In this document: piece after piece, positions 53,733 through 56,843 of the stretch | How the letters are laid out: every line of letters starts with the position of its first letter | Numbering within the stretch: position 1 is the stretch's first letter | NCBI GenBank assembly: GCA_009699245.1 | Contig: WLOQ01000006.1 | Location: 62,001 to 126,000 of the forward strand | Origin: Actinomycetota bacterium | GTDB lineage: Bacteria > Actinomycetota > Thermoleophilia > Solirubrobacterales > Solirubrobacteraceae | Direction of reading: 5' to 3' | Length of the DNA: 64,000 bases | The notes under the pieces: generated by a model | What the model was told of the DNA's origin: nothing | Databases searched by the model: none | The model's input: the letters and a program-made list of their open reading frames with translations, nothing else | Made by a program: the position numbers and the translations under genes

Positions 53733-54359
53733 ATGCCCCCAGCCCGCCGCATCGCCTTCGCCGCCGTCGTGGCGCTCTGCGCCGGACTGACGGCGGCCGC
53801 GCTGCTCGCGGGCTTCAGCTCCAGCCCGCTGATCCGCGCGCTCGAGACGCTCGCGATCATCGGCCTCGTGATCGCCGTGGTCTTCGGTGGAGCGATCGCC
53901 CTCGGGCTGCGCCTCGCTGGCTGGCAGGAGCCCGAGTCGGAGGAGGACTTCGATCGGATCGTCGAGCGCAGTGAGCGCCTTGCGGCCGACGGGCTCGCCG
54001 TCGACCCGGATGAGCACGAGTTCCTCGAGCTCGATCCCTTCAGCGACCGCGACTTCGAAGAGCTCGTCCGCGAGGCGCTCGACGAGCTCCCCGACATGCT
54101 GCGCACCGCCCTCAACCGCAACGTCGCCGTCGTGATCTCGGACAAGGGCCGCCGCGAGCGCGCCTACGGGCTCTATCAGGGGGACGGCGCCACGCGCGAC
54201 GATCACCCGGACCGCATCATCATCTTCCGCGACACCCTGCGCCGCGACTTCGGCCATGACGCCGACCTCCTGCGCGAACAGGTGACCATCACGGTCCGCC
54301 ACGAGCTCGCCCACCACATCGGGTTCGATGAGCTCGGCGTGCGCGGCCTCGGTCTCTGA
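53733..54359 (+). CDS. Membrane-anchored minimal zinc metallopeptidase
   Basis: 208 aa. Two N-terminal hydrophobic segments (FAAVVALCAGLTAAALLAGF; LAIIGLVIAVVFGGAIAL), then an acidic linker and a compact domain of the DUF1025 / minimal zincin family with VTITVRHELAHHIGFDE (HExxH). LYQGDGATRDDHPDRIIIFR precedes it, as in the family. Family members are small cytosolic zincins; the membrane anchor is unusual. Start 10 nt after the dehydrogenase, and the stop overlaps ltrA by one base. Confidence 0.88.
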   Translation: MPPARRIAFAAVVALCAGLTAAALLAGFSSSPLIRALETLAIIGLVIAVVFGGAIALGLRLAGWQEPESEEDFDRIVERSERLAADGLAVDPDEHEFLELDPFSDRDFEELVREALDELPDMLRTALNRNVAVVISDKGRRERAYGLYQGDGATRDDHPDRIIIFRDTLRRDFGHDADLLREQVTITVRHELAHHIGFDELGVRGLGL

Positions 54360-55546
54360 TGCAAGGCCACGACGGCGCGCGCCACCTCTCCCCGCTGCAC
54401 AGGCCACCGCAGCTACGTCGCTCGCAGGGCGACGACCGCCATGCGACTTGGCTCGAGCTCTTCTTCGACCTCGTGATCGTCGCCGCGGTGATCAGCCTCG
54501 CGGGGCGCCTCGTCCAGGAACCGGACCTCGTCGGGGTGCTGCGCTTCATCGCGCTCTTCATCCCGATCGCGTGGGCGTGGATGGGGTTCACGTACTACGC
54601 CAATCGCTTCGACAGCGACGACCTGATCTACCGCCTGACGGTGTCGGCCTCGATGCTCGCCATCGCGGCGATGGCCACCTCGATCGGCGATCTCTCGGAC
54701 GCGGCGACGCGCCGCTTCGCGCTCGCCTACGCGGCGGTGGCGTTCCTGCGGCTGCTGCTCTACGCACGAGCGCGGCATCACGTCCCGGAGGCTCGCCGGA
54801 CAATCAACTTCTACCTGCTCGGCTTCGGTCTGGGCTTCCTCTTCTGGGTCGTGTCGGCGCTCGTGCCGCCGCCCATGCGCTATGTCCTGTGGGGGATCGG
54901 ACTGCTCGTCGAGTTTGCGACGCCGCTGCTCGGCTGGGGGACGATCTCCGCGACGCCCGTCGACCGCGTGCATCTCGTCGAGCGCTTCGGGCTCTTCACC
55001 ATCATCGTGCTCGGCGAGTCGATGCTCTCGCTCGTCCTCGGCGTCCAGATCGCCTCATGGACCGGGACGACGGTCGCCGTCGCGGGCGCGTCGTTCATGG
55101 GCACGGTCGCGATCTGGTGGACGTACTTCGATTTCGAGGGCGGGCACAAGCTCAAGGCCGGGCTCTGGGGGTTCGTCACCTCGTACGGCCACATCGCGAT
55201 CTGGCTGTCGACGGCGGCGCTCGCCGCGGCCGCGAAGATGGCGATCAAGCACTCGGACGAGATCGTCGCCGACGCCGGGGAGCGATGGATCGCCGTCGGG
55301 TCCGCCGGCGTGTTCCTCGCGACGATCGGCATCTTCCACTTCGCCGACCGCGACGACGAGCCACGGCTGCTGTCGCTTGCGCGCATCTGCGGCATCGCCG
55401 CGCTGATGGGGATCGGAGTCTTCGGGTCGAGCCTGCGCTGGCCGACGCTCATGGTGGCGATCGCCGCAATCCTGATCGTCGGCGCCGTTGTCGAAGGCCT
55501 CAGCCGGCGTCACCTGCTCCTGCGTGGCCTCGGCACAGAGGCCTGA
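54359..55546 (+). CDS. LtrA (low temperature requirement A) family membrane protein
   Basis: 395 aa with about ten hydrophobic helices. The signature ATWLELFFDLVIVAAVISLA opens the domain, and ERFGLFTIIVLGESMLSLVL and WWTYFDFEGG are diagnostic. The molecular function of the family is unknown. ATG shares its first base with the preceding stop (TGATG), indicating coupled translation. Confidence 0.92.
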   Translation: MQGHDGARHLSPLHRPPQLRRSQGDDRHATWLELFFDLVIVAAVISLAGRLVQEPDLVGVLRFIALFIPIAWAWMGFTYYANRFDSDDLIYRLTVSASMLAIAAMATSIGDLSDAATRRFALAYAAVAFLRLLLYARARHHVPEARRTINFYLLGFGLGFLFWVVSALVPPPMRYVLWGIGLLVEFATPLLGWGTISATPVDRVHLVERFGLFTIIVLGESMLSLVLGVQIASWTGTTVAVAGASFMGTVAIWWTYFDFEGGHKLKAGLWGFVTSYGHIAIWLSTAALAAAAKMAIKHSDEIVADAGERWIAVGSAGVFLATIGIFHFADRDDEPRLLSLARICGIAALMGIGVFGSSLRWPTLMVAIAAILIVGAVVEGLSRRHLLLRGLGTEA

Positions 55547-55596
55547 CCGCGCCACCTGGCTCGGCTGCCGGCCGCGCGTGTCACACTCGAAACGCC

Positions 55597-56060
55597 ATGC
55601 AGCGACTGCGAATTCTGGGCCTCTTGGCGCTGCTGCCGGTGCTTGTGCCGGCCGTCAGCGCGTCAGCGCGTCAGCATCGACTTCAGCGGACACGACCGCG
55701 CCGACGCTTTCGCGGCCGATGATCGAGCCGAAGGTGGTCTCGCGAACAGCGCGGACGACGGCGCTGCGGTTCACGCTCGACGAGTCCGCGATGGTGCGCG
55801 GGACGATCATGCGCCGCTGGCCGGGGCGGCGCGACGTCGCGGGACACTGTGTCTCTGCGCGGACGGGTGCGAAGGGCGAGCGCTGCACCCGCCGTGCGAC
55901 TGCGGGGCAGTTCAGCGTGAGCGCCGCGCCCGGGGCCAACCGGGCGCGGCTCGCGGTGCTGCGTCTGACGCTCGGGTCCTACACGCTGCTGCTCACACCG
56001 ACCGATGCGGCGGGCAACGCGGGCGTCGCGCGAACGGTGACCTTCCGGGTCACCCGCTGA
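55597..56060 (+). pseudogene. Secreted Ig-like-domain protein, out of frame at an 8-bp repeat
   Basis: ATG 55597 opens a clean signal peptide (RILGLLALLPVLVPAVSASA) but that frame stops at about 55722. The next frame carries the mature part: ADTTAPTLSRPMIEPKV, RTTALRFTLDESAMVRGTI and LLLTPTDAAGNAGVARTVTF, a layout I associate with secreted proteins of Solirubrobacterales. The switch falls in GTCAGCGC repeated 2.75 times. Removing one 8-bp unit restores one continuous frame of about 151 aa. It is either a pseudogene, a phase-variable gene or an assembly error. Confidence 0.8.
55654..55675 (+). repeat. 8-bp tandem repeat (GTCAGCGC) x 2.75
   Basis: Units at 55654-55661 and 55662-55669, plus GTCAGC at 55670-55675. 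The unit length is not a multiple of three, so each slippage event changes frame. Confidence 0.9.
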
Positions 56061-56069
56061 CCTGGTGGC

Positions 56070-56843
56070 TCAGCGCGGGGCCATCCGGATGGCCCCGTCG
56101 AAGCGGATGACCTCGCCGTTGAGCATCGGCGTGCGCACGATGTACGTCGCGAGGTCCGCGTACTCCTCCGGCTGACCGAGCCGGCTCGGGAACGGCACCT
56201 GCTGACCGAGCGACTTGCGCGCGTCCTCCGGCAGGGAGGCGAGCAGCGGAGTCTCGAAGAGGCCCGGGGCGATCGTGCAGACACGGATGCCGTCGCGATG
56301 GAGGTCGCGTGCGGCGGGGAGGGTCATCCCGACCACGCCGCCCTTCGTCGCCGAGTAGGCGATCTGGCCGATCTGACCGTCGTAGGCCGCGACCGACGCG
56401 GTCGTGACGATGACGCCGCGCTCGCCGTCCGGCTCATCCGGGGACGTCTCGGTGATCATCTTGAATGCCGCGAGGCGCATCATGTTGAAGGTGCCGACGA
56501 GGTTGATGTCGATCAGGTTCTGGAACTGGTCGAGCGGGTGCGGACCCTTGGCCGACGCGACCTTGACGGCGAACCCCGTTCCGGCGCAGGCGACGGCGAT
56601 GCGCAGCCCGCGCGGGGCCTCCGCGGCGCGATCGACGGCCGCCTGCATCGGCTCCTCATGGCGCACGTCACACGCGACGAAGGCGGCTCGATCGCCGAGC
56701 TCGTCGGCGATGGCCTGACCACGCTCCGGATTGAAGTCGGCGATGACGACGTGCGCGCCCTCAGCGTGGAGGCGGCGGACGGTGGCCTCGCCGAGGCCGG
56801 ATGCGCCACCGGTGATGACGGCGCCTGCTCCTTCGATGTTCAT
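56070..56843 (-). CDS. Short-chain dehydrogenase, 3-hydroxyacyl-CoA dehydrogenase type II-like
   Basis: 257 aa. GAGAVITGGASGLGEATVRR (NAD loop), VIADFNPERG with the NAD-selecting Asp, NMMRLAAFKMI, VTTASVAAYDGQIGQIAYSA with Ser-Tyr-Lys, and a C-terminal RLGQPEEYADLATYIVRTPM. It resembles HSD10/FabG-like beta-oxidation dehydrogenases. Divergent from a thiolase, consistent with a shared beta-oxidation role. Confidence 0.92.
   Translation of the reverse strand: MNIEGAGAVITGGASGLGEATVRRLHAEGAHVVIADFNPERGQAIADELGDRAAFVACDVRHEEPMQAAVDRAAEAPRGLRIAVACAGTGFAVKVASAKGPHPLDQFQNLIDINLVGTFNMMRLAAFKMITETSPDEPDGERGVIVTTASVAAYDGQIGQIAYSATKGGVVGMTLPAARDLHRDGIRVCTIAPGLFETPLLASLPEDARKSLGQQVPFPSRLGQPEEYADLATYIVRTPMLNGEVIRFDGAIRMAPR

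What the first reader, a model, noticed from the sequence alone, without database searches (positions are those of the whole stretch)
55597..56060. 8-bp tandem repeat switches a secreted protein out of frame
GTCAGCGC repeated 2.75 times sits exactly at the end of the signal peptide. As sequenced, the exported part is out of frame; deletion of one 8-bp unit gives a continuous frame from signal peptide into the Ig-like domain. Slipped-strand mispairing could toggle surface exposure, a phase-variation layout rarely described in soil actinobacteria.
Basis: partly seen in the sequence, partly recalled or inferred. Interest (0 to 1): 0.65.

Follow-up and report, generated by a model that had tools for sequence, protein, structure and literature searches.

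The report
Frameshifted secreted Ig-domain gene, 8-bp duplication
A small bacterial gene for a secreted, antibody-fold-like protein has been knocked out of reading frame by one extra copy of an 8-letter repeat; this looks like an ordinary recent, possibly reversible mutation rather than an evolved on/off switch.

Summary
GTCAGCGC x 2.75 lies at 55654-55675. The ATG at 55597 starts a good signal peptide that runs into a stop at 55722. The downstream domain is in another frame, and loss of one 8-bp unit would join them into a 151-aa secreted protein. The domain is real: it is the coding frame, it folds confidently as an Ig-like beta sandwich, and relatives in two species of the genus encode signal peptide and domain in one intact frame. 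The array is unusual for this genome: it is the only perfect array of at least 22 bp in 571 kb whose unit is not a multiple of three.

The phase-variation reading is weak. The array has under three units, both relatives lack it, the sampled genome shows no other frame-shifting arrays, and the would-be "on" state has only a 7-bp repeat to slip on, so switching back off should be far rarer than switching on. The best reading is one recent slippage duplication that silenced a dispensable gene and can revert. The domain shows no decay, so the event is recent, or not fixed, or a consensus choice. Raw reads and same-species strains, which would decide it, were not available.

The parts
55597..55653 (+). 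Start codon and signal peptide, MQRLRILGLLALLPVLVPA, N-terminal part of the frameshifted gene
   Evidence: Translation; the start lies at the place of the start of the intact relative in G004, just after a conserved CACACTCG
55654..55675 (+). GTCAGCGC x 2.75 tandem array (2.9 copies with the preceding C), coding Val-Ser-Ala-Ser-Ala at the signal-peptide end; one unit more than the open frame allows
55597..55722 (+). Reading frame as sequenced: 41 aa, signal peptide then Arg-rich out-of-frame tail, ending at TGA 55720-55722
55668..56060 (+). Mature part of the protein in the other frame: single Ig-like beta-sandwich domain with two conserved cysteines, stop at 56058-56060
   Evidence: Coding log-odds, relatives, AlphaFold mean pLDDT 92.4, structural matches Z up to 11.4
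55719..55722 (+). ATGA: ATG of the domain frame overlaps the stop of the signal-peptide frame; possible re-initiation site for a leaderless fragment
   Evidence: Sequence; the intact relative has the same ATG followed by A, so probably a by-product of the protein sequence

Best explanation
The locus is a small gene for a secreted protein with one Ig-like domain, silenced in the sequenced population by a single recent 8-bp tandem duplication. Shown: the gene is out of frame by exactly one unit; relatives in two species of the genus are intact and lack the array; the domain is undecayed. Inferred: the ancestor carried ...CGTCAGCG CGTCAGC..., an ordinary Ala/Ser-coding signal-peptide end. Its two 7-bp copies of CGTCAGC, one base apart, let the polymerase slip once and add 8 bp. 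The ribosome now leaves the signal peptide in the wrong frame and stops at 55722, so no mature domain is exported. Precise loss of one unit, helped by the 15-bp overlap between copies, would restore it. The mutation is thus revertible in principle, but nothing shows that the array was built or kept as a switch.
For: Out of frame by one unit. Intact signal peptide plus domain without the array in G004 (162 aa, 69% identical domain, same neighbours) and G006. No other array of >=22 bp with a unit not divisible by three in 571 kb, and one homopolymer of >=8. The would-be intact state is commonplace: 229 places in 571 kb hold an 8-bp period over >=14 bp. Domain undecayed: same number of conserved columns kept as in G004 (29 of 39 each) and no consistent excess of changes on the window branch; dN 0.26, dS 0.53. 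Precedent for the mechanism and its asymmetry: in Burkholderia penA, direct repeats of 3-8 bp bordered de novo tandem repeats, which arose about 50 times less often than substitutions (themselves 1e-8 to 1e-7), while loss of an extra copy occurred at 9.3e-7 to 3.6e-5 (PMC4169377). A published survey treats frameshift genes without a cluster as likely indel mutation or sequencing error (PMC3711429).
Against: The domain shows no decay, so the event must be recent or the intact form must still circulate; that is also what a switch predicts. The array is the one exception in the sampled genome and sits at a place where a frame change decides export. Only two relatives in the genus could be compared, and none from the same species.
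Confidence: 0.66

Rival explanations
1. A phase-variable contingency locus: slipped-strand mispairing at the array toggles export of the Ig-like protein, and selection maintains the array.
For: Unit not divisible by three, perfect repeat, position at the signal-peptide end of a secreted protein, undecayed domain. Phase variation by slippage is reported in other actinobacteria (Gardnerella PMC11287997, listed; M. tuberculosis PMC12817950 and PMC8339072).
Against: Only 2.75 units, and the number of units is held to be the main determinant of instability (PMC3899988). Array not conserved in relatives. No second such array in 29% of the genome. The intact state would have just a 7-bp repeat to expand again.
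Confidence: 0.14
2. The extra unit is an assembly or consensus artefact, or a minority allele chosen by the assembler, and the population is mostly intact.
For: The genome is a draft of 19 contigs; its reads are not available here. The domain is undecayed.
Against: A 22-bp array is shorter than ordinary reads. The assembly is otherwise nearly free of frameshifts: of 10 unexplained frame changes in 571 kb, 8 are ordinary overlapping gene ends.
Confidence: 0.13
3. Not broken: the protein is made by another route, such as a different start codon, ribosomal frameshifting, or re-initiation at the ATGA 55719-55722, giving a domain without a signal peptide.
For: An ATG of the domain frame overlaps the stop of the first frame. 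A GTG at 55578 opens the domain frame upstream.
Against: The GTG product has no signal peptide, whereas the relatives do. No slippery heptamer is visible at the junction (by eye). The ATGA also exists in the intact relative, has no visible ribosome-binding site, and starting there would cut off the conserved stretch before it.
Confidence: 0.05

Closest known systems
De novo short tandem duplications in Burkholderia penA (PMC4169377)
   Same: Short direct repeats mediate a tandem duplication in a coding sequence; loss of the extra copy restores the original at a measurable rate
   Different: Those duplications keep the reading frame and change enzyme specificity under drug selection; here the frame is lost and no selection is known
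Reversible frameshift indels in Mycobacterium tuberculosis (ScarTrek, PMC8339072; glpK, ESX-1)
   Same: Actinobacterial gene silenced by a frameshift that a second indel can restore
   Different: Those are seen as variation across thousands of isolates, often at homopolymers; here there is one genome and an 8-bp unit
Simple-sequence contingency loci (for example Neisseria meningitidis, PMC5084427)
   Same: Repeat unit not divisible by three inside the start of a gene for an exposed protein
   Different: Those typically have more units, many loci per genome and proven variation; here 2.75 units, one locus, and no variation shown
Bacterial Ig-like domains (Pfam Big_13, PF19077)
   Same: Seven of 13 aligned domains match Big_13 (best E 7.5e-6), and the predicted fold is an Ig-like beta sandwich
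   Different: The window's own domain scores 14.1 bits against a cut-off of 27, so it is not a member by Pfam's rule

Membership tests
Simple-sequence-repeat contingency locus (phase variation) | Change of one repeat unit switches the reading frame | tested here: met
   Loss of one unit gives an open frame of 151 aa
Simple-sequence-repeat contingency locus (phase variation) | Tract long enough to be hypermutable (several or more units) | tested here: not met
   2.75 units, 22 bp
Simple-sequence-repeat contingency locus (phase variation) | Repeat conserved at the site in relatives of the gene | tested here: not met
   G004 and G006 relatives have no array at the site and are in frame; no copy in the genus
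Simple-sequence-repeat contingency locus (phase variation) | Copy number varies among strains or within a population | not testable with these tools
   One genome per species held; no raw reads
Simple-sequence-repeat contingency locus (phase variation) | Genome carries a set of such loci (usual, not obligatory) | tested here: not met
   No other perfect array >=22 bp with unit not divisible by three in 570,707 bp, 29% of the genome
Phase-variation cluster in the sense of GeneTack (PMC3711429) | Cluster of five or more related frameshifted genes with repeats near the frameshift | tested here: not met
   Among the relatives fetched none shows a frame break next to the domain (several loci are cut at the 5' end)
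Frameshift pseudogene | Intact relatives exist and this copy cannot give the full product | tested here: met
Frameshift pseudogene | Further decay of the coding sequence (expected only of old pseudogenes) | tested here: not met
   No further stop in the domain frame, conserved columns kept as in G004; so recent, if a pseudogene
Bacterial Ig-like domain (Pfam Big_13) | Score above Pfam's gathering cut-off | tested here: not met
   14.1 bits, cut-off 27
Ig-like beta-sandwich fold | Predicted structure matches solved Ig-like or PKD domains | tested here: met
   Mean pLDDT 92.4; Z 11.4 lambda tail tip (rmsd 3.0, 101 residues), 11.2 GbpA (rmsd 2.8, 97), 10.7 PKD domain (rmsd 2.2, 90)

The most novel reading that the evidence does not exclude
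A true slippage switch of a secreted Ig-like protein in a Solirubrobacteraceae-type actinobacterium, with on and off cells coexisting in nature.
Probability: 0.12. Interest if true: 0.45.

Novelty: new member of a known kind. Interest (0 to 1): 0.2.

Why it matters
As it stands, it is one more gene silenced by a small tandem duplication, useful as a clean example of a recent event with intact relatives at hand. If copy number proved to vary, it would be an export switch in a lineage where none turned up in the one literature search made here, and raw metagenome reads could show it directly.

Tried and rejected
Scan of public genome contigs with the domain found only two distant relatives, no same-species copy. 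Family-wide search of 146 genomes gave six genomes (the own one included) with a match at E <= 1e-12. The first protein alignment used the wrong strand for three loci and was replaced. A first coding model, trained on the longest frames regardless of composition, did not discriminate and was replaced. Promoter, terminator and Rfam scans found nothing. PADLOC found nothing for the domain or its LtrA neighbour. Paper searches for an 8-bp tandem with frameshift and for Solirubrobacter with phase variation returned none. Ribosomal frameshifting was considered and dropped: no slippery heptamer at the junction and intact relatives without a shift.

Full report
What is there. The window holds GTCAGCGC repeated 2.75 times at 55654-55675. 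An ATG at 55597 opens a typical signal peptide, MQRLRILGLLALLPVLVPAVSASA, and this frame runs on for 17 Arg-rich residues to a TGA at 55720-55722. The frame that ends at 56060 encodes the mature part. It is offset by one base, and loss of one 8-bp unit would join the two into a protein of 151 residues.

Is it more than chance? Two of 60 second-order Markov simulations of the window contained an array of this length with a unit not divisible by three. The better yardstick is the genome itself. Of 18 perfect arrays of at least 22 bp and two copies in 570,707 bp, 17 have units divisible by three and one, this one, does not. The array is therefore a real outlier, as expected for something that breaks a gene. 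The state with one unit less is not: an 8-bp period over at least 14 bp occurs 229 times in the same sequence.

Is the domain a real gene product? Yes. The frame ending at 56060 is the only forward frame with a positive coding score. In G004, a species of the same genus, the gene lies in the same place between an LtrA-like gene and a short-chain dehydrogenase, is 162 residues long, reads from signal peptide into domain without a break, and has no array. G006 also has a signal peptide plus one such domain in one frame, near the same dehydrogenase. The AlphaFold model of the window's domain has mean pLDDT 92.4 and is all beta but for two short turns. It aligns with the Ig-like domains of the phage lambda tail tip (Z 11.4), with GbpA (Z 11.2) and with a PKD domain (Z 10.7, rmsd 2.2 over 90 residues). 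Pfam's Big_13 is matched by relatives, best E 7.5e-6, but not at its cut-off by the window's own domain.

Is it decaying? No sign. There is no further stop. Of 39 conserved columns the window and G004 each keep 29. With distant relatives as outgroups, the window branch has no consistent excess of changes. dN is 0.26 and dS 0.53 between window and G004, with neighbours at dN 0.07 to 0.16, so the gene evolves faster than its neighbours, as secreted proteins often do, but under constraint over the whole span. The frameshift is therefore recent, or not fixed, or a consensus choice.

Is the assembly error-prone? Apparently not. A frame-tracking model over 571 kb flagged 10 frame changes that no stop codon explained directly. 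In 8 the upstream frame ends within 15 bases, that is, ordinary gene overlap. The remaining two were not followed up.

How it most likely works. At the end of the signal peptide the inferred ancestral sequence, CGTCAGCG CGTCAGC, codes Val-Ser-Ala-Ser-Ala. Its two copies of CGTCAGC lie one base apart, and a single slippage adds 8 bp. In Burkholderia penA, repeats of 3 to 8 bp bordered new duplications, which were about 50 times rarer than substitutions at 1e-8 to 1e-7, while extra copies were lost at 9.3e-7 to 3.6e-5 (PMC4169377). By analogy the present state should revert far more easily than it re-forms. That asymmetry, the small number of units, the absence of the array from relatives and the lack of sister arrays in the sampled genome all speak for a one-off event and against an evolved switch. 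The steps shown are the frame, the intact relatives and the lack of decay. The slippage origin and the rates are inferred.

What would change the view. GeneTack's published scheme files frameshifted genes without a cluster as likely indels or sequencing errors, and calls phase variation when repeats recur near the frameshift across a cluster (PMC3711429). Here there is one genome and no cluster. Mixed copy number in reads would overturn the verdict at once; the session held neither reads nor a second strain. A phase-variable reading remains possible at about one in eight.

Relation to known things. Slippage-based phase variation is documented in other actinobacteria, such as Gardnerella (PMC11287997, abstract) and Mycobacterium tuberculosis (PMC12817950, PMC8339072). 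So even the stronger reading would extend a known kind rather than found a new one.

Noticed in passing
window 55719-55722: ATGA: a start codon in the domain frame overlaps the stop of the shifted frame, so re-initiation could give a leaderless domain fragment. The intact G004 relative has ATG followed by A at the same residue.
   Followed up: partly
window 54359-56060; L031 about 1440-2080: The slot between the zincin-like gene and the dehydrogenase varies within the genus: LtrA-like plus Ig-like gene in the window and G004, what looks by eye like a VapB/VapC-type pair in G008, and nothing in seven others.
   Followed up: partly
G000 C16:38900 and C1:7654: Two places where the coding frame changes without an immediate stop, 25 and 85 bases before the next stop of the upstream frame; possible frameshifts or larger overlaps.
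   Followed up: no
window 55923-55950 and 56076-56097: Two perfect 11-bp inverted repeats, one inside the domain (6-base loop) and one just after the gene's stop with no loop, GC-rich and without a T run.
   Followed up: no
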